Below, in pieces: positions 22,609 to 31,578 of a stretch of 64,000 bases of DNA. The DNA comes from Dickeya chrysanthemi NCPPB 402 (GTDB lineage: Bacteria; Pseudomonadota; Gammaproteobacteria; Enterobacterales; Enterobacteriaceae): the NCBI RefSeq assembly GCF_000406105.1, contig NZ_CM001974.1:4505050-4569049 (forward strand). The letters run 5' to 3'. The stretch's first letter is position 1, and the number at the start of each line of letters is the position of its first letter. A model generated the notes under the pieces. The model had not been told where the DNA came from. It made no database searches and saw only the letters and a program-made list of their open reading frames with translations. Both the position numbers and the translations under genes were made by a program.

Positions 22609-23304
22609 TTACTCATCGCCGCTGAACAGATGATCGTACACATGCTGGAGATGACGCTCCATGCTGGTCCGTGCCCGTGCCGGGTCGCGCGCGATGATGG
22701 CATCGGCGATATCGGCGTGATCCTGATTCATGGTGCGGGGAAAATCGGAGTCGGCGTACAGTGTTTCCAGCCGCACGAACCGGCTGCTCTGACGCTTGTT
22801 CCACAGGTACTCCATCATGTCCTGTAGCACTTCATTGCCGGACATCTCGCTAATCAACAGGTGGAAACGCTTGTCTTCATGCAGAAACTGCGCGTCATTA
22901 ACATTAAGGCGGGACAGATCGCGGGTGATCGCCTGTAGCGCAGCACGCTGCTCGTCGGTGGCCTGCACCGCCGCCAGCTCCGCCATCATCGCTTCATACA
23001 CCTGCCGAGCCTGAATAAACGCCCGCAGGCTGAATTCATCTTCCGGCAACGCAACGGGCGGTGCCTCTGGTAGCGGATCGTTGACATACACACCGTTCCC
23101 GGTACGGATTTCCACCCAGCCGGTGATTTCCAGCGCGATCAGCGCCTCACGGATCGACGAGCGGCTTACCCCCAGCTGTTTCGCCAGTTCTCGCTCCGAG
23201 GGCAGCAGTTGCCCGGCCGCAAACTGACCGTTCCTGATGCAGTTAATCAGCAGCGTGGATATCTGCCGGTAAAGCCGCTCAACTTTCAGTGTGGGTAACA
23301 CCAT
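22609..23304 (-). CDS. GntR-family (FCD subfamily) transcriptional regulator
   Basis: A 231-residue regulator. The N-terminal winged helix (about residues 5-75) contains LLPSERELAKQLGVSRSSIR and the EVRTG-type wing (EIRTGNGVYV). The C-terminal FCD domain has helical ligand-binding features with metal-ligand-type residues (HEDKRFHLLI, DHADIADAI). Paralogs include UxuR, ExuR, DgoR and LgoR, which sense sugar acids. uxuA lies 7 kb away across the AT-rich island, so this may be its regulator with the island inserted between them; that link is an inference. Confidence 0.88.
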   Translation of the reverse strand: MVLPTLKVERLYRQISTLLINCIRNGQFAAGQLLPSERELAKQLGVSRSSIREALIALEITGWVEIRTGNGVYVNDPLPEAPPVALPEDEFSLRAFIQARQVYEAMMAELAAVQATDEQRAALQAITRDLSRLNVNDAQFLHEDKRFHLLISEMSGNEVLQDMMEYLWNKRQSSRFVRLETLYADSDFPRTMNQDHADIADAIIARDPARARTSMERHLQHVYDHLFSGDE

Positions 23305-23829
23305 ATCCCCTCCGGTTCCCCCGTCAGTCGTGACCTGTCAACGTCTGTTCCGCCAATAACAGCCTGAAGCTTACCATAGCATCAGTAGCATCTCTTAATA
23401 ATGTACAAACACGATAGGAACAACTCCTGCATCGTTGGCAAAGGGACGAAAAAGTGGGCATACATATGCAACATCAGAATAAAAGCTGACCCAACAGGCA
23501 CTGGAAAAACTGATTTGTACTCGAGGTAGTGCACAGAAAAAATGCAACGTATTTTAAATTTTAACAATCCATAATTATATTTTACACAGCCTAATCAAAG
23601 GGGGATAATGTTACAAATAAAAAACAAAATTAAACACGCCCATTTCAAATGAGCCATCCAGAATAATAATTAAACATCATTAAATAATCGTGCTAATCAT
23701 TATAACAGGAATACTTCTCCAGCATGCATTTTATTACCCCAAAGAAAAACAACAAAATGAAACAATTCACCTATAACGACACTTGAATAAAAATTAAAAC
23801 CCAAAGACAAATAATTAATAAAAATGCGA
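23305..23829. other. Left boundary zone of the AT-rich island
   Basis: The composition changes sharply to AT-rich from about 23390. There is no gene, no tRNA and no integrase. I see no direct repeat shared with the right edge near 30.1-30.3 kb. Confidence 0.45.
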
Positions 23830-23910
23830 TTGACATCACAGCGCTAAAATCAATAACATCGTGATGATTAATATATAAAAACACCATCTACACTTTAGTT
23901 TTAAAGTGTA
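23830..23910 (+). promoter_or_regulatory. Candidate promoter and inverted repeat upstream of the ligase cluster
   Basis: A TTGACA hexamer at 23830-23835 is followed at plausible spacing by TAACAT (23854-23859). At 23889-23910 lies a 22-bp inverted repeat: TACACTTTA, GTTT, TAAAGTGTA. It is placed 111 bases before the first ATG and could be an operator or a leader hairpin. AT-rich DNA gives many false promoters, so only the inverted repeat is firm. Confidence 0.45.
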
Positions 23911-24020
23911 ATGATTGTTGTTACTTATCTCAAATAACTGTTTTATTTAAATAACATAAATAACAGGGGATTTATTTTATTTCCATTTATAGAAATGGAT
24001 TTTTTATACAAGGACAAAAA

Positions 24021-25127
24021 ATGAAATATATAGACAGCAAAAACAAAATTTATGTTGAGTCACTTACAGAAAAAGAGAAAAGATATTTATTGAATTATAA
24101 AGAATTCATTAAAAATCAGTCAATATGCTTAGTTGAAGGAACTCACTCACAGGAAAATTTGATATATAAGTCTCAGGCATCCGATGAAGAAAGAGGAATA
24201 ACATCAATAGAATCAGCTTTCATTGATTTAGGACTTAATTATAAAAAAATAGAATCAACAGATAACAATCTTCAATATGAGATAAACAATCATAATTTCG
24301 TATTTATATATGCTCATGGCGAGTATGGAGAAGATGGCAGGCTACAAGGATTTCTAGATTATATAGATAAACCGTACCCTGGCTCAGGCGTTTTGGCTAG
24401 TGCGGTTTGTTGCGATAAATTAAAATTCAAGTACCTTATGACTGGATCATCCGTCAACACTCCAAATTTTTATGAACTCAATATTCATGATTCATATAGC
24501 GATGTTCATAAAAAAGCACTATGCCTTCAGTACCCTATCATGGCAAAAGAACGATGTGGAGGAAGCAGCCTCGGTATTACATATATTTCTAACGATGAAG
24601 ATCTACATACATGGTATGAAAAAAATAAGAATGAAATAAACAAATACTTCCTTGAAAAATTCATATCAGGAAGAATTATATCTGTAGGCTTTGTTCAAAT
24701 GATAGAAGGCGTTCTCATATTACCTACATTGGAAACAGTAACAAACTCAAATTACTACGATGCTGAATTGAAAATCGGTCATAGTCATCATGATGTAAAG
24801 TATATTCTAAATAGTTTTTCCAGTAAGGAATATATTGATAGGAAAATAAAAGAGACAGCAATAAAAGCCTTTGAACATGCAGCATGTCAAGGAGTTGGTC
24901 GAGTTGATTTAATCATCGATGACAATGATGATATTTTTATTCTCGAAATCAATACAATACCAGGAATATCAAAGAATAGTAATTTTACAAAAATGTTTAC
25001 AAGTTTAGGGTTTAGTTATAACGAATTAGTGATTGCATTTATCAGAACCGGAATTCTGAAAAAAGAAAACCAAGGAAATAAACACATTTATTTCACCGAA
25101 GAAAGAAGTGAAGAAGAATGTTTATGA
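24021..25127 (+). CDS. D-Ala-D-Ala ligase-like ATP-grasp enzyme
   Basis: A 368-residue ATP-grasp ligase resembling Ddl. Visible motifs are HGEYGEDGRLQGFLDY and PYPGSGVLAS (substrate/ATP region, about residues 98-130), KERCGGSSLG (about 175), EKFISGR, GVGRVDL with the oxyanion arginine, and LEINTIPGI (Mg/ATP-binding ExNTxPG). The N-terminal GGxSxE motif of true Ddl, which positions the first D-Ala, is missing, so the first substrate may differ. ATG follows AAGGAC. It is the first gene of the cluster; its stop overlaps the MFS start. Base composition is far more AT-rich than the chromosome around it, suggesting transfer. The product is unknown. Confidence 0.88.
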   Translation: MKYIDSKNKIYVESLTEKEKRYLLNYKEFIKNQSICLVEGTHSQENLIYKSQASDEERGITSIESAFIDLGLNYKKIESTDNNLQYEINNHNFVFIYAHGEYGEDGRLQGFLDYIDKPYPGSGVLASAVCCDKLKFKYLMTGSSVNTPNFYELNIHDSYSDVHKKALCLQYPIMAKERCGGSSLGITYISNDEDLHTWYEKNKNEINKYFLEKFISGRIISVGFVQMIEGVLILPTLETVTNSNYYDAELKIGHSHHDVKYILNSFSSKEYIDRKIKETAIKAFEHAACQGVGRVDLIIDDNDDIFILEINTIPGISKNSNFTKMFTSLGFSYNELVIAFIRTGILKKENQGNKHIYFTEERSEEECL

Positions 25128-26361
25128 TATTAAATACTATATTTAAATCAGGATACTCAAAATCCAGTCAGGTATTATTGTTAAATACATTGCTTGTTGC
25201 TTTGGGAGCATTTATTCTTAATCCCTATTTGCTTATAGGTGCAAAAGAATCCCTGGGTTTGGATTATACATACCTAAGCACATCGATTATGATATCCATG
25301 ATAATTGGTAGTAGTGTTTCATTATTACTAGCAACTATCAATATAAATGACAACTCAAGAAAAATATTATTATCCGCAATGTTATTTTCGACACTTGGCG
25401 TAATGATAATATACTACTCAACCACATCAAAGATGCTTATCTTCTACACCTTAGGGTTAATATTCATCAGAATATGTATGGCATCCGCAACGATCATGAC
25501 TCGCTCTATACACACTATAACAAATATTCATCATGAAGACTGCTCACCATTGTTTTCCTCTGCTGCAATGATGTTTGGAATAGGTTCATCTGTAGGGCCA
25601 ATACTAGGTGCAATTATCTTTCAAGATGGAAAGTTTGGATCAGTAATCATTGCAACATCATTAATTTATCTTTTAGGATTCATTATTATCCTTATTAATA
25701 ATGAAAAAATAAAAAATGATATAAACACATATCTTACAGAGGTAAAAAATCAATCAAAAGAGGACAAAAAAAAGCCGGAGAAGGTTTAATCAAGTCCACC
25801 CCATTTTATGTTATATGTATTATTTTCAATATATTCCTAGGACAATCCATCAGTGTTATACCTATAAAATTTAATGAAACCGGAGGTGGAACATATGTTA
25901 GTTTTTTCTTTTTTATTAACGCAATATTACTGATAATTTTTTCCATCCCGGTTGCAATTCTTATCAAAAAATTAGAATTATCAATAAAAAAATGCTTTAC
26001 AATAAGCTTGGTTTCTATGCTGGTAGCAATTTTATTGATTCCTAGTACACCATATGGATTTTACATACCCGTGCTTATAACAATATTCTATTCCATAGGT
26101 GAGATCATATTCCCTGTTTATGCCATGGAATATATAAGAAAATATACTCAGCCCAGCCAGATACAAAAAAACATATCTATATATAGCTTTCTATCAAATG
26201 CAATTGGTATTGGATTTGGCCAATACTTTGGAGTTTACATATACCAGTATATAGACAGCCATATATGGCATATAGTATGGTTATCCGTCACAATTATATC
26301 CATACTATTATTGACAACTATTACGCATCAGTCCTATAGCGTAAATACAGAAGTTGAATGA
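25118..26361 (+). pseudogene. MFS efflux transporter split by a one-base deficit in an A8 tract
   Basis: Membrane transporter of about 12 TM segments in two frames. The first frame (25118-25789, 223 codons) covers TM1-6 and runs into a spurious end KKKPEKV. The second frame resumes directly (AGEGLIKSTPFYVICIIFNI) to 26361 and covers the rest. At 25766-25773 there are eight A residues; nine would join both halves into one 414-residue MFS protein, the normal length. The start overlaps the ligase stop, indicating translational coupling. The probable role is export of the peptide made by the neighbouring ligases. It could be inactivated, expressed through slippage, or a base-call error. Confidence 0.8.
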
Positions 26362-26388
26362 ACACTAAATTTTATAGAAATAAAAACT

Positions 26389-26925
26389 ATGTCATCGATA
26401 CCATATATTAGCCAAAATTGGTTAAAGAACTATGATGTAAATAAAAAAGACATGAAAGAGTTATTTGGCATGATCCAATATTGGTCTGACCGCTCTTGTG
26501 GTCTTGCTTGTCTGTTGATGGCGTTAAAAGGACTGAAAAACACCGAAATAAAGATGCATGATATATTTAATGCTGCCATAAGGATTGGTGCATACTCGCA
26601 GAATGGTTGGATTCACTATAAACTAGCAGAACTATCCACCTCTTTTGGGCTCCCGTCCCAGGCATTGAAAATCCCTTTAGATGACGTATTAGATCTAGTC
26701 AATAAAGGTGCTGTTTTCATCGCATCTATTCGGCATAAGTTTCCAGTCAATGCAGGAAAAGGGGGTCATCTGGTGCTTGTTTACAAATATAAAGAACATG
26801 CCGGAAAGAAATATATTTTTTTCAGAGATCCTTCTCGTTGGGGAGAAACACATAACTGTATAACCATTGACAGATTTAATGCAAGTTATAGCAGTAACGG
26901 CATAATCCTTGGTATCCACCATTGA
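26389..26925 (+). CDS. C39-like papain-fold cysteine peptidase
   Basis: 178 residues, no signal peptide. A papain-like core of the C39/C39_2 type: catalytic cysteine in DRSCGLACLLMALKG (about residue 34), histidine in GKGGHLVLVYKY (about 125) and aspartate in FFRDPSRWGE (about 145). Bacteriocin-exporter C39 domains are fused to ABC transporters. This one is free-standing and sits inside a ligase cluster, so it may trim, cyclise or transpeptidate a small peptide, or act in self-protection; that is inference. It is 27 bases after the MFS stop, co-oriented, with a weak ribosome-binding site. Confidence 0.75.
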   Translation: MSSIPYISQNWLKNYDVNKKDMKELFGMIQYWSDRSCGLACLLMALKGLKNTEIKMHDIFNAAIRIGAYSQNGWIHYKLAELSTSFGLPSQALKIPLDDVLDLVNKGAVFIASIRHKFPVNAGKGGHLVLVYKYKEHAGKKYIFFRDPSRWGETHNCITIDRFNASYSSNGIILGIHH

Positions 26926-26965
26926 AATTGATAGTTTAATATTCTAAATTAAAAAAGGAAATAGA

Positions 26966-28116
26966 ATGAAACGAGTCGCTTTAATTTGTCCACTAAATTA
27001 TGATTTTGCAGTAAGGTACATTGATGCCGCACTCAAACACAATCTTATTCCATTAGTTATTACGACTAAGTCAACACATATCGATTTCTCTAAATACAAA
27101 AACATTGAAGAAATAAAAATTGATGAATTATCATCATCTCCCTACGAACTACTAAATATACTGAGAAATATTAATGATCTTGCCGGCATTGTTGCATCTG
27201 GCGAGTTCTCCGTAGAGGCAACCGAATTCCTTTGCGCTGAATTAGGTTTGATACGAGCGATTAATGGTGACCCCAGTGTATTAAGAAACAAGAAAAAAAT
27301 GAGAAATGCATTTCAAAAACAAGAAGTTTCTCAACCGATGCTCATAGGCATTTTCACATCATACAAAGATCTTATATCTAAAGTAAATGATACCATTCAT
27401 TTCCCTGTTATAAGCAAACCTGTCGATATGGCTGGTTCATGGTATGTATCAATCAATCATACACCTCAGGAACTAATTAGAAATGCGGAACCTATTTTTT
27501 CCTATAAAAAATCATTTGCAACAGGGATTGATTTTAAAGGAGAATGCATTATTGAAACATTTTTTGAAGGGGAAGAATATAGTGCGGAAGTTATTGTAGA
27601 GAGCGGTCTCATCATTAATTACTTTATAAACAAAAAGTTTGTCTCAGAATTACCTAATTTTGATGAAATTGGGCATATATGTGGCGAGAAAATAAAACCA
27701 GAAATAGCAGGTGTTCTTGAAAGGAATATAGAGAAAATTATTCGTTCCGCTGAAGTAAACTCAAGTATATTACATGTTGAGTTCAAAGTTAATAATAAAA
27801 ATGAGATTGCAATAATAGAAGTTGGATGCAGAGTTGCAGGTGATTATATTACCAGGCTCGTCAACCTCACATATGGAGTAAATTTAGAAGAAATATTAAT
27901 CATGTTAAAATGTGGAATTCCTTTACCTGACATAGAAAATAAAAACGAAAAAAATATGGCATAGAATTTTTATTTAGAGAAAAAAACAATGAAATAACAC
28001 CTGAAAATAATAAGACAATCATTGAGGAAGTAAAATATAATGGCAGAACACCAGCCCCTCATCTCAGCCCAACGCATCTTCAGAATCGCATTGGTTACAA
28101 TTTATTTTACATTTGA
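26966..28116 (+). pseudogene. L-amino-acid-ligase-type ATP-grasp enzyme, C-terminus frameshifted at A7
   Basis: ATP-grasp ligase of the BacD/L-amino-acid-ligase type. The N-terminal Rossmann-like domain starts MKRVALICPLNYDFAVRYID. ATP-grasp motifs are VISKPVDMAGSWY (about residue 150), IIETFFEGEEYSAEV (about 195) and HVEFKVNNKNEIAIIEVGCR then VAGDYI (about 270-295). The reading frame closes after 332 codons at 27964. At 27948-27954 there are seven A residues; one more would continue as YGIEFLFREKNNEI to a stop at 28114-28116, just 11 bases before the next ATG. The core catalytic domain is complete even as written. AAGGAAA precedes the ATG. Confidence 0.82.
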
Positions 28117-28127
28117 GTGATACAGCC

Positions 28128-29394
28128 ATGGCACATATATTATTTATTGATTCAAATCTTACTGGACCAATTGTTATGCATCATGCAAAATCACTTGGCC
28201 ATTATGTATCATTCATAGAATCAGGTGAGTTTAGTTGGTATAAAAAAAATGAGAAAAACAAAAAATATTAAATAGTCTAGATAATTATATCAAAACGAAA
28301 GAAATAACCGATTATGATGAACTATATGAAAATATAATAGCGATTGAAAAAATAAAAAAATAGATGCCATTATATGCTTGCCAGAAACAGCAATTGAGTT
28401 TGCAGCAAAGGCAGCTCAAGACCTTAGTTTACCATTTCCTACAGTAGAGTCAGTTAATAGATGCAGGAATAAACTTTATACCCGAAATACTTTAAATGAA
28501 AAAAAAATCAAAAACGCAAAATATTATACGGCAAAAAACAAAAAAGAGGCAATTGATAGCGCAAATAAAATCGGTTATCCAGTAATATTAAAACCAATAT
28601 CAGGTAGAGATAGCTTTTTTAGCTATAAAGTTAAAAATCAAACTGAGCTTGAATCATATTGGCATGAGGCTGAAAGAAAAATTTGTGAACTCCCGGTATC
28701 TGTCCGTGTTCAATATGAAAGAGGTTTTCTTATAGAAGAGTACCTTTCTGGCGAAATGGTCTCTGTTGAAGTAGCACACAATGGAAAAGAAACAAAAATA
28801 TTAATGGTTTCATCTCGTGGTCGTTCTGAAAAAAATGAGATGGTTGAATATCGTATTGATATGCCAGCCGATATCAGTGAGGAAGAATGGCTGCGATGTG
28901 AAGAGTATGCTATTTCTGTTATACAAGCTCTAGAACTTCATTATGGTATTTTTCATCTCGAGATGATGATCACATCAAGAGGCCCTATCCTTGTTGAGGC
29001 TAACGCAAGGATCATGGGAGGATTCATGCCACTTTTATATCTGAATTTCACAGAACATGATATTTACAAACTCATGTTTGATATTCATTTAGGGAGAAAA
29101 CCTGATATTGACATAAAAAAAATGACCGAAAAATATGCTACAACAATTAGATTAGAGGCACTTTCCGAATCGACCATCAATCATGAAAAAATGCTTAAAT
29201 GCATATCCAATTTTTCTAAAAACATTATCTTTTCAGAAACTATAGAATCGAGTGGATCATCAATAAGCATCAAACCACAAGATGTACTTGGACGCATTCA
29301 ACTTTTATGTAACTCTGCTCAACAGCGGGATAGCATGACTAAATCACTGATCAATAGTATTGAATCAGAATGCAATGTGGAGTTACTACATTAA
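28128..29394 (+). pseudogene. Second L-amino-acid-ligase-type ATP-grasp enzyme with two A-tract frameshifts
   Basis: The first 47 codons from 28128 (MAHILFIDSNLTGPIVMHHA) stop at 28271. A middle piece in the next frame (ILNSLDNYIKTKEITDYDEL) stops at 28363. The main body follows in the third frame to 29394, with ILKPISGRDSFFSY, LIEEYLSGEMVSVEV and GIFHLEMMITSRGPILVEAN (ATP-grasp C-lobe, ExN). One extra A within 28254-28265 and one in the A7 at 28354-28360 restore a single 422-residue enzyme. Longer A-tracts in the same gene (28242, 28499, 29113) keep frame. Co-oriented with, and tightly spaced after, the other ligase. Confidence 0.82.
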
Positions 29395-29415
29395 ATCTGC
29401 AAATAACCACCGTGA

Positions 29416-30093
29416 TTATTTAACATAATCATACAATGCAAATTGTGCATTGGTCATAGCAGCCCAGTATTTATCACCATATGACCAATGCCACCACTCA
29501 AATGGGTAATTGACAAAGCCATTAGCTGATAACACACTAAACATAATATTTCGATTTTTTTGTGCTTTCTCGGAGATATTTTCACAAAAACTCATACACT
29601 TTCCATTGGAAGATGCGATATCCATATCATATTCTGACCCCATATCACATATTTTTCCGGACAAACACAGCAGCAGATCGATAGCACCTCCAGTAGGGTG
29701 CCCAGCTACATTGGGTGGCGCAACAAATTCTGATGTCAACCTAACCAGCTCTTCGTGTGAAAGTGTTAAGTATTCTGCTGCAAGCCGTTTTAATCGCCGA
29801 TTAAAATAGAACTTCTGCATCGAAACAGGTCTGAAACTTTCCTTGATGATGAATCCATAATCATCAGGAAGTAAGTTTGCAGCACGAGTCAAACGTTCAG
29901 CAACAGATTCCCTGACTTTAAATACGGGGGTATACTCCAGATGAGAATGGTTGTCTAATGAATCATCAACAAATATATTCTTATGAATACCAACTATATC
30001 CACCAGCTTTTCATGACACTCAGCTACAGGTATTGATGACACTCGTAAATCAGAAAGTGCCACAGGTTTTTTAACATTGCCAGACTCTTGCAT
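29416..30093 (-). CDS. VanX/DdpX-type D-alanyl-D-alanine dipeptidase (peptidase M15D)
   Basis: A 225-residue zinc D,D-dipeptidase. All family residues are visible: arginine in ESFRPVSMQ (about 86), zinc ligands histidine and aspartate in AGHPTGGAIDL (about 130-140), and catalytic glutamate plus third zinc ligand in EWWHW (about 205). There is no signal peptide, so it acts in the cytoplasm. VanX hydrolyses D-Ala-D-Ala in glycopeptide resistance, and E. coli DdpX recycles it. Here it faces a Ddl-like ligase cluster (convergent, 21 bases from its end), suggesting it cleaves, recycles or protects against the cluster's dipeptide. ATG has AAGGGAG 10 bases upstream. Intact. Confidence 0.88.
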   Translation of the reverse strand: MQESGNVKKPVALSDLRVSSIPVAECHEKLVDIVGIHKNIFVDDSLDNHSHLEYTPVFKVRESVAERLTRAANLLPDDYGFIIKESFRPVSMQKFYFNRRLKRLAAEYLTLSHEELVRLTSEFVAPPNVAGHPTGGAIDLLLCLSGKICDMGSEYDMDIASSNGKCMSFCENISEKAQKNRNIMFSVLSANGFVNYPFEWWHWSYGDKYWAAMTNAQFALYDYVK

Positions 30094-30284
30094 AACACAT
30101 TACTCCCTTTAGTCATTCTAGAGACCAGCTAATCATCAATAGCTATATTACTTAGCATTTAGGACTTAACGGCCACTCCCAACAATTATGTCTACTGAGA
30201 CCAGACTATGTTTCTAATCACTCAAACTACTGGGGCATAATTAAACTGATAACTTGTTGTCTTATCATCTCACCAATCCCAATT
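30094..30284. other. Right boundary zone of the island
   Basis: AT-rich spacer between the dipeptidase start and the uxuA control region, with promoters for both expected here. No gene or mobility signature seen. Confidence 0.4.
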
Positions 30285-30300
30285 AGTGACATACATCACA
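30285..30300 (+). promoter_or_regulatory. CRP-type site upstream of uxuA
   Basis: AGTGA-CATACA-TCACA, matching the CRP consensus TGTGA-N6-TCACA with one mismatch, 94 bases before the uxuA ATG. Catabolite control of hexuronate genes is well established. Confidence 0.65.
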
Positions 30301-30332
30301 GAAATATCGCCACAGGTGGTGAATAGTGAACC

Positions 30333-30357
30333 GGTCCGGTGGTCAGGCCACCAGACC
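30333..30357. promoter_or_regulatory. Inverted repeat operator in the uxuA leader
   Basis: GGTCCGGTGG / CCACCAGACC arms (one mismatch) around TCAGG, 36 bases before the start. GGT...ACC symmetry fits GntR/FCD-family operators, so the regulator at 22609-23304 is a candidate. Confidence 0.5.
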
Positions 30358-30393
30358 GACCATCGACATCAACAGAGTTTAAGGAGCTGCATT

Positions 30394-31578
30394 ATGGAAC
30401 ACACCTGGCGCTGGTATGGCCCCAACGATCCGGTGTCGCTGGATGATGCCCGTCAGGCGGGCGCGACCGGTATCGTCACCGCCCTGCACCATATCCCGAA
30501 TGGTGAAGTGTGGAGCATCGAAGAGATTAAGCAACGTCAGGCGATACTGGCGGAAAAAGGGCTGACCTGGTCAGTGGTGGAAAGCGTGCCGGTGCACGAA
30601 GCCATCAAAACCCAGACCGGCGATTACCGGCGTTATATCGCCAATTACCAGCAGTCACTGCGTAATCTGGGCGCCTGCGGCATTGATACCGTGTGCTACA
30701 ACTTCATGCCGGTGCTGGACTGGACCCGTACCGATCTGGAATACCCAATGCCGGACGGCTCCCGGGCGCTGCGTTTTGATCACACCGCCTTCGCGGCGTT
30801 TGAGCTGCACCTGCTCAAGCGTAACGGCGCCGCCGCCGACTACACCGATGAAGAACAGCGTCAGGCCGCTGCGTATTTCGCCGCCATGACCGATGCCGAC
30901 AAAGACAAGTTGACCCGCAATATTATCGCCGGTCTGCCGGGTGCCGAAGAAGGCTATACGCTGGAGCAGTTCCGCGCCCAACTGGCGCAGTACGACGGTA
31001 TCGATAAAGCGAAGCTGCGTGAGCACATGGCGGAATTCCTGCGGGCGATCGTGCCGGTAGCGGAAGAAGCCGGTATCGTGCTGGCGGTACACCCGGACGA
31101 TCCGCCGCGGCCAATCCTCGGCCTGCCGCGCATCGTTTCGACCATTGAGGATATGCAGTGGCTAAAAAATACTGTCGACAGCATCCATAACGGCTTCACC
31201 ATGTGCACCGGGTCTTACGGCGTACGGGCAGACAACGATTTGGTGAAAATGATCGAAACCTTCGCCGACCGTATCCACTTCACTCATTTGCGCGCCACCT
31301 GCCGCGAAGACAACCCGAAAAGCTTCCACGAAGCGGCTCATCTGCATGGCGATGTAGACATGGTGAAGGTGGTGAAAGCGATTCTGGCGGAAGAACACCG
31401 CCGCCGTCAGCAGGGCAATACCCGCGCCATTCCGATGCGCCCCGACCACGGCCACCAGATGCTGGATGACCTGAAGAAGAAAACCAACCCCGGCTATTCC
31501 GCCATCGGGCGGCTGAAAGGGCTGGCGGAAGTGCGCGGCGTCGAACTGGCGATCAAACAAACGTTCTTTAACGACTGA
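30394..31578 (+). CDS. uxuA: Mannonate dehydratase UxuA
   Basis: A 394-residue cytoplasmic Mn/Fe-dependent enzyme converting D-mannonate to 2-keto-3-deoxygluconate in glucuronate catabolism. It begins [20 protein letters not shown] and ends [19 protein letters not shown], almost identical in form to E. coli UxuA. Metal-site histidines lie in [17 protein letters not shown] and [18 protein letters not shown]. The open frame extends 36 codons upstream, but AAGGAGC 5-11 bases before 30394 and family length fix the start. uxuB is not adjacent. An ERIC remnant follows. Confidence 0.98.

What the first reader, a model, noticed from the sequence alone, without database searches (positions are those of the whole stretch)
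24021..30093. Unrecognised ATP-grasp peptide cluster with three ligases, exporter, C39-like peptidase and VanX-type dipeptidase
Six adjacent genes in a strongly AT-rich island read as a ribosome- and NRPS-independent small-peptide pathway: a Ddl-like ligase, an MFS exporter, a free-standing C39-like cysteine peptidase, two L-amino-acid-ligase-type ATP-grasp enzymes and a convergent D,D-dipeptidase. Known relatives of single components occur in bacilysin, rhizocticin and tabtoxin pathways, but I do not recognise this combination. Three consecutive ligases could make a tri- or tetrapeptide containing a D-amino acid. The dipeptidase and peptidase would then be processing, recycling or immunity enzymes.
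Basis: partly seen in the sequence, partly recalled or inferred. Interest (0 to 1): 0.87.

Follow-up and report, generated by a model that had tools for sequence, protein, structure and literature searches.

The report
Ligase-peptidase operon for unknown small peptide
A foreign stretch of DNA in a plant-rot bacterium carries genes that look able to build, trim and export an unknown small peptide without ribosomes; its core is an unusual pairing of a cell-wall-type ligase with a papain-like enzyme that turns up together in several distant bacteria.

Summary
Largely confirmed. A 6.9-kb, 33% G+C island lies between a GntR regulator gene and uxuA in a Dickeya genome; 6 of 8 other genomes of the genus have 73-160 bp there. 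It holds a Ddl-like ligase, MFS exporter, C39-like papain-fold protein, two ATP-grasp amino-acid-ligase-like proteins and a convergent VanX-like dipeptidase. As given, the MFS gene and third ligase are split between frames and the second ligase lacks its C-terminus; an intact third ligase is in the protein database and the breaks fall in A-runs, so assembly error is likely but unproven. New: the Ddl-like protein sits in a clade of 52 sequences that all lack the Tyr kept by 61 of 61 other Ddls, and a C39-like gene lies at or close downstream in Dickeya, an Escherichia-named genome and many Streptomyces, often with a further peptide ligase. Best reading: a ribosome- and NRPS-independent peptide pathway around a Ddl*-C39 module; product and chemistry unknown. 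The second ligase and dipeptidase are not conserved with the core, and the exporters are not clear orthologues. No match to the pathways compared. The D-amino-acid tri/tetrapeptide claim is untested. A new variant of ATP-grasp peptide clusters.

The parts
23343..30285 (.). AT-rich island inserted between a GntR-type regulator gene and uxuA
   Evidence: G+C 33.0% vs 55.8%; flanks 73-160 bp apart in 6 of 8 genus genomes; uxuA TIGR00695 697.9 bits, cut-off 199.55
24021..25127 (+). Ddl-like ATP-grasp ligase of a divergent clade (Ddl*), 368 aa, intact
   Evidence: Dala_Dala_lig_C 109 bits; below the cut-off of each of the 25 Ddl/Van models shown; Tyr216-equivalent is Ile, clade position; extra to a housekeeping Ddl in the same genome
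25118..26361 (+). MFS exporter, interrupted: N-part 25118-25789, C-part in another frame to 26361
   Evidence: MFS_1 48.6 bits on the N-part; 22.6 bits, below cut-off, on part of the C-part
26389..26925 (+). Stand-alone C39-like papain-fold protein, 178 aa, intact; Q9, C37, H127 invariant, D147 nearly so
26966..27964 (+). Ligase 2, ATP-grasp, L-amino-acid-ligase-like, C-terminus lost in this sequence (probable remnant in another frame to about 28116, by eye)
   Evidence: ATP-grasp_4 64 bits; 4dim 5.7e-11, BL00235 3vot 1.2e-9; other open frames 384-428 aa
28128..29394 (+). Ligase 3, ATP-grasp, L-amino-acid-ligase-like, in three frame segments here; an intact 422-aa relative exists (P0127)
   Evidence: ATP-grasp_4 66 bits; P0127, 6 members, 4 contigs, 100% over the C-part; segments 100, 92.5 and 99.7%; P0127 to BL00235 3vot 3.9e-18
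29416..30093 (-). VanX-like M15 dipeptidase, 225 aa, convergent, intact, metal-site-like motifs present
   Evidence: Peptidase_M15 56.6 bits; PDB 1r44 (D-alanyl-D-alanine dipeptidase) 6.8e-8; HPTGGAID and EWWH

Best explanation
A horizontally acquired operon for a small peptide made by free-standing ATP-grasp ligases. Core: a Ddl-like ligase (Ddl*) whose selectivity residue has changed, so that it probably does not make D-Ala-D-Ala, paired with a papain-fold C39-like enzyme that acts on the ligase product, either trimming a residue or transferring the acyl part to another amine. One or two L-amino-acid-ligase-like enzymes extend the peptide, an MFS protein exports it, and the VanX-like dipeptidase probably removes a D-containing dipeptide (by-product clearance or self-protection). 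Shown: gene content, insertion, clade and residue change, fold (predicted) and conserved catalytic-type residues of C39, recurring neighbourhood. Inferred: every reaction, the substrates, the order of steps, the role of M15, and that the operon works in this strain.
For: Ddl*-C39 adjacency: a C39 match directly or closely downstream of the Ddl match in 20 of 83 loci; those 20 plus the 30 sequences of A1, L019 and L061 (named beforehand) make up a clade of 52 without intruders (local support 0.915 after rerooting), all with L/I/M/H after the catalytic Lys, while 61 of 61 others have Tyr. Starting instead from C39 in 238 Streptomyces genomes: 51 matches in 47 genomes, 30 read; the 13 strong ones (224-264 bits; one is L012's own genome) have a Ddl match within about 1.5 kb in 12, the 17 weaker ones in 8. 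Further ligases sit nearby: LAL-like in L011, L012, L016, L061, FemAB-like in L012, L016, L061, Mur ligases in L027 and L051, a Mur_ligase_C and a DapF-type family in 12 of 12 L013-type loci (identified in L018). MFS genes: L011, L012, and ORFs of the L012 MFS family in L016 and L061. All 7 genomes tested also hold a strongly scoring Ddl of at least 213 bits besides Ddl*. No short ORF with a Shine-Dalgarno-like motif lies outside the island's genes.
Confidence: 0.58

Rival explanations
1. Peptidoglycan-precursor remodelling or antibiotic self-resistance: Ddl* makes an altered D-Ala-X terminus, C39 and the VanX-like M15 remove the normal one, and Mur-type ligases load it.
For: VanX-like M15 near a Ddl-like gene; Mur ligases next to Ddl*-C39 in L027 and L051 and a Mur_ligase_C family plus DapF-type family in the L013-type loci; His after the catalytic Lys in 3 C39-partnered loci and in 4 loci, as recalled for VanA-type enzymes; a distant C39 relative directly downstream of a PBP2- and RodA-like gene pair (names by eye).
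Against: Two LAL-like ligases and an exporter have no place in this scheme; L011, L012 and L016 have no M15 match; the M15-Ddl pairs in Kribbella (L056, L062) are with Tyr-type Ddl and lack C39.
Confidence: 0.18
2. A decayed, non-functional island: the frame breaks are real mutations in this strain.
For: Four frame changes in about 6 kb, one of them (ligase 2) judged by eye; the island is absent from the 8 other genus genomes.
Against: The breaks coincide with long A-runs, a usual place for base-calling errors (my comparison with the run list); an intact ligase 3 identical over its C-part is in the protein database; Ddl*, C39 and M15 are open and keep their motifs.
Confidence: 0.15
3. A peptide-tagging system in which the ligases add amino acids to a protein and the papain-fold enzyme removes them.
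For: A papain-like family related to the C39 families is often fused to acetyltransferase-type domains that might act as peptide ligases (passages of PMC10318531); L012 and L016 join C39, FemAB/GNAT-like and ATP-grasp genes.
Against: MFS genes in the island and in L011 and L012; solved relatives of ligases 2 and 3 include free amino-acid ligases such as BL00235 and BacD.
Confidence: 0.05
4. A known pathway (bacilysin, dapdiamide, phosphonopeptides, mycosporine-like amino acids, D-cycloserine).
For: Single shared enzyme families.
Against: BacD and DdaF equivalog cut-offs not approached (31-53 against 840-850 bits); the seven pieces scanned in the island show no further enzyme family that would point to these pathways; their gene lists are recalled.
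Confidence: 0.03

Closest known systems
ATP-grasp oligopeptide pathways, e.g. phosphonoalamides PnaB/PnaC (PMC11867202, passages seen)
   Same: Two free-standing ATP-grasp ligases build short peptides in sequence without NRPS.
   Different: No phosphonate gene seen here; a Ddl* and a C39-like enzyme form the recurring core, which the passages seen do not describe.
Bacilysin BacD / L-amino-acid ligase BL00235 / dapdiamide DdaF
   Same: Ligases 2 and 3 belong to the same ATP-grasp_4 superfamily; BL00235 is the best PDB sequence hit of ligase 3 and the second best of ligase 2.
   Different: Far below the BacD and DdaF family cut-offs; no Ddl-like or C39-like partner in those pathways, as far as recalled.
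[quoted passage not shown]
   Same: Same family fold; Lys, Arg, Glu and Asn positions invariant with the housekeeping Ddl in A4.
   Different: Separate clade; Tyr216-equivalent lost; Ser/Gly/Ala-Asn where others mostly have Ser-Leu/Met/Ile; a strong Ddl is present besides it.
C39 peptidase domain of PCAT1/ComA transporters
   Different: Stand-alone, no ABC transporter among the island ORFs, no precursor peptide found.
Glutathione synthesis plus phytochelatin synthase (Alr0975)
   Different: Not shown to be a member: weak similarity, structural rank below PCAT1, ComA and others, transpeptidation untested.
VanX / DdpX
   Same: M15 dipeptidase with HPTGGAID and EWWH motifs.
   Different: Below both equivalog cut-offs (44 of 320; 50.5 of 176 bits).

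Membership tests
D-Ala-D-Ala ligase (Ddl) | Ddl C-terminal ATP-grasp domain | tested here: met
   PF07478 109.1 bits, cut-off 24
D-Ala-D-Ala ligase (Ddl) | Curated subfamily score | tested here: not met
   TIGR01205 186.6 of 245.65; PRK01372 178.9 of 243 bits
D-Ala-D-Ala ligase (Ddl) | Tyr after the catalytic Lys (E. coli DdlB Tyr216, residue number and role recalled) | tested here: not met
   Ile here; L/I/M/H in 52 of 52 clade members, Tyr in 61 of 61 others
D-Ala-D-Ala ligase (Ddl) | D-Ala-D-Ala synthesis | not testable with these tools
   needs purified enzyme
L-amino-acid ligase (LAL) for ligase 3 | ATP-grasp_4 and ATP-grasp N-terminal domains | tested here: met
   P0127: 66 and 29.7 bits, both above cut-off 27
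L-amino-acid ligase (LAL) for ligase 3 | LAL_C2 C-terminal domain | tested here: inconclusive
   no match at E 0.05 in P0127, but relative L012 has it at 55 bits
BacD / DdaF equivalogs | Curated equivalog score | tested here: not met
   BacD 34.1 and DdaF 31.3 bits (ligase 2), 39.2 and 53.4 bits (ligase 3 C-part) against 850 and 840
C39 peptidase | Pfam C39 profile and fold | tested here: met
C39 peptidase | Catalytic-type Cys, His, Asp | tested here: met
   C37 and H127 invariant in 19 of 19, D147 in at least 90%
C39 peptidase | Fusion to an ABC transporter and a double-glycine precursor | tested here: not met
   178-aa stand-alone protein; no ABC family among the pieces scanned; no candidate precursor ORF of 20-110 aa
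Phytochelatin synthase | Sequence family | tested here: inconclusive
   profile hit to Alr0975 at 7.7e-5; no phytochelatin-synthase family among the 11 Pfam families that the 18 members matched at E 1
VanX / DdpX dipeptidase | Curated equivalog score | tested here: not met
   44 of 320 and 50.5 of 176 bits
VanX / DdpX dipeptidase | M15 profile and metal-site-like motifs | tested here: met
   56.6 bits, cut-off 27; HPTGGAID and EWWH (meaning recalled)

The most novel reading that the evidence does not exclude
Ddl* and its C39 partner are a new two-enzyme logic for peptide assembly, shared by proteobacteria and actinobacteria: a Ddl-derived ligase makes a short peptide, and the papain-fold enzyme uses it as acyl donor to elongate or cap a D-amino-acid-containing peptide without further ATP, much as phytochelatin synthase uses glutathione; different lineages plug in different third ligases (LAL, Mur, FemAB).
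Probability: 0.22. Interest if true: 0.8.

Novelty: new variant of a known kind. Interest (0 to 1): 0.52.

Why it matters
If right, it marks a family of peptide pathways that mining tools tuned to NRPS or to RiPP precursors could easily miss, with a clear sequence signature (Ddl-like protein lacking the Tyr after the catalytic Lys, C39-like gene nearby). The signature gives direct tests of substrate and of whether the papain-fold partner hydrolyses or transfers. It also warns that some proteins called D-alanine--D-alanine ligase may not be that.

Tried and rejected
Ribosomal peptide with C39 as leader peptidase: no ORF of 20-110 aa with a Shine-Dalgarno-like motif and under 30% overlap with the genes. 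Mobile-element ends: no long repeat at the island borders among the repeats shown. Promoters and terminators: numbers at chance level. Plasmid or E. coli carriage: no DNA match of the island in plasmids; no tblastn match of Ddl* in plasmids at 1e-30, while relative P0002 as query matched 424 plasmid records at 1e-20, of which I opened one (L094); no match of the L011 cluster in plasmids (distant mode) or E. coli genomes (near mode). Known defence proteins: none at 0.01 in PADLOC for the five proteins scanned. Single-sequence fold of C39: pLDDT 45.6, discarded. Foldseek against PDB could not be started. LAL_C2 in the ligase 2 remnant: no Pfam match. Census in proteobacteria, thin samples of larger groups: Ddl* in 1 of 398 Pseudomonadota genomes (the window's own), 0 of 11 and 1 of 246 genomes of the L011 family (L011's own); C39 in 1 of 394 Enterobacterales (own) and 2 of 369 Gammaproteobacteria (own and G1085), the latter without Ddl or ligase match nearby. 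Assembly error was tested only indirectly: comparing the window with two other genus genomes gave 2 (G008) and 4 (G002) split ORFs outside the island, some likely spurious frames; one lies at a T-run. Literature: eight searches listed no title or abstract start on a Ddl-C39 pair or this Dickeya cluster; subscription papers are mostly not held, so it may be in print.
Full report
1. What is there. The window is from a genome of the genus Dickeya, by its closest named relative: the Ddl-like protein is 97% identical to one from Dickeya dianthicola; the genome's genus set searched holds 9 genomes, its own included. Between a gene for a GntR-type regulator (22609-23304, minus strand; below the cut-off of all six models listed) and uxuA (30286-31578; TIGR00695 697.9 bits) lies a 6943-bp stretch of 33.0% G+C; the rest of the window has 55.8%, and none of 87 other stretches of that length, taken every 500 bases, is below 50.4%. 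In 6 of 8 other genus genomes the same flanks are 73, 74, 124, 142, 158 and 160 bp apart; in the remaining two about 1.7 and 2.0 kb of other DNA lie there. So this is an insertion of foreign DNA.

2. Genes. In order: Ddl-like ligase, MFS exporter, C39-like protein, ligase 2, ligase 3, and convergent M15 dipeptidase. Spacing between successive genes is -10, 27, 40, 11 and 21 bases, where ligase 2 is counted to the end of its likely remnant; the five plus-strand genes look like one operon. Three genes are not continuous in the sequence given: the MFS gene (two frames), ligase 2 (ends at 332 aa; the 5 other open frames found in its order have 384-428 aa) and ligase 3 (three segments). The frame changes coincide with long A-runs (one search lists the runs; the comparison is mine, for ligase 2 by eye). 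A 422-aa ligase 3 is in the protein database (P0127: 6 member sequences, 4 contigs, 100% identical over the C-part). It is listed without a source, as the tool does for proteins of the window, but its longest contig is 121,882 bases, not the window's 4,669,628, so I infer that it comes from other assemblies. I take assembly error as more likely than decay, but did not prove it.

3. The Ddl-like protein. It matches the Ddl C-terminal domain (109 bits) but none of the 25 Ddl/Van models shown at its cut-off. Its 29 nearest relatives were aligned with it (A1). With the 80 loci fetched from species genomes, one of two viral-contig hits (the other, L093, is cut and was left out) and a Streptomyces plasmid (L094), plus the housekeeping Ddl of this genome as root, a tree of 113 sequences holds a clade of 52: the 30 of A1, the 20 loci with C39, and L019 and L061, named beforehand, with no intruder; local support 0.915 after rerooting. 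The residue after the catalytic Lys, Tyr216 in E. coli DdlB by recall, is L, I, M or H in all 52, and Tyr in all 61 others, including the housekeeping Ddl. A later pair is Ser-Asn, Gly-Asn or Ala-Asn in the clade (one row has a gap) and mostly Ser-Leu/Met/Ile outside it. All 7 genomes tested hold another Ddl match of at least 213 bits. From established knowledge of Ddl and Van enzymes (recalled), this position affects substrate choice, so I infer that Ddl* does not mainly make D-Ala-D-Ala.

5. Neighbourhoods. L011 (Escherichia sp. ESNIH1 by title): cysteine-synthase-like, Ddl*, C39, ligase 3-like, MFS. L012 and L016 (Streptomyces): Ddl*, MFS (Pfam in L012; same ORF family in L016), C39, FemAB/GNAT-like, ATP-grasp ligase. 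L061 (actinobacterial MAG): aspartate-kinase-like, Ddl*, an ORF of the L012 MFS family (no NCBIfam match at 1e-20), FemAB-like, ligase, decarboxylase-like, no C39. In 12 of 12 L013-type loci compared, a DapF-type and a Mur_ligase_C-type ORF family flank the pair (single-linkage families; identified in L018). L027 and L051 have a full Mur ligase. In the protein database Ddl* and a ligase 3 homologue share a longest contig of 80,668 bases, and Ddl* and C39 homologues share lengths of 5,853 and 2,506; equal lengths suggest, but do not prove, one contig. The ligase 3 C-part matches L011 at 38% (6e-75), L012 and L016 at 29% (9e-17, 5e-17) and L061 at 25% (6e-12); ligase 2 and M15 have no separate match there, and the MFS pieces none at 1e-4 (L011 3e-4). 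M15 matches occur next to Tyr-type Ddl in two Kribbella loci and in 7 of 148 Enterobacterales genomes, the window's own included.

6. Reading. The plainest account is a peptide pathway: ligases for bond formation, an exporter, a papain-fold enzyme for trimming or transfer. Phosphonoalamides show that two ATP-grasp ligases suffice for tripeptides (PMC11867202, passages), and the cystargolide/belactosin pathways use ATP-grasp ligases and a hydrolase (PMC11427300, passages). Relatives of C39_2 include the acyltransferase BtrH and, in the same passage, phytochelatin synthase is discussed (PMC10318531, passages). The cell-wall rival is kept at 0.18 because Mur ligases, DapF-type and VanX-like proteins recur around Ddl-type genes.

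7. Limits. No substrate, product or stereochemistry is shown. The proteobacterial members are rare in the genomes sampled. Literature searches listed no description of the pair; papers on Dickeya metabolites were seen only as a listing and as passages of PMC9765074 and PMC9653667; PMC2922099 was seen as passages.

Noticed in passing
L138 8369-8995 (an unnamed gammaproteobacterium): A distant C39 relative lies directly downstream of a PBP2-like and RodA-like gene pair, with no Ddl or ligase match nearby (names by eye).
   Followed up: partly
L092 (IMG/VR contig) and L094 (708-kb Streptomyces plasmid): The Ddl*-C39 pair is carried on a contig in a viral collection and on a plasmid, so it may be mobile.
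   Followed up: partly
L154, L155, L161, L162, L164, L168: Weaker C39 matches in Streptomyces sit near Ddl-like genes with His (4) or Arg (2) after the catalytic Lys.
   Followed up: partly
same insertion site in L111 and L112: Two genus genomes with lower identity have about 2.0 and 1.7 kb of other DNA between the regulator gene and uxuA.
   Followed up: no
window, about 16.3-16.6 kb: An ORF of another genus genome matches in two frames here at a T-run, which may mean a homopolymer error outside the island too.
   Followed up: partly
L011 8986-9912: A cysteine-synthase/cystathionine-beta-synthase-like gene upstream of Ddl* scores below the cut-off of each of the 25 models shown and may supply an unusual beta-substituted alanine.
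   Followed up: no
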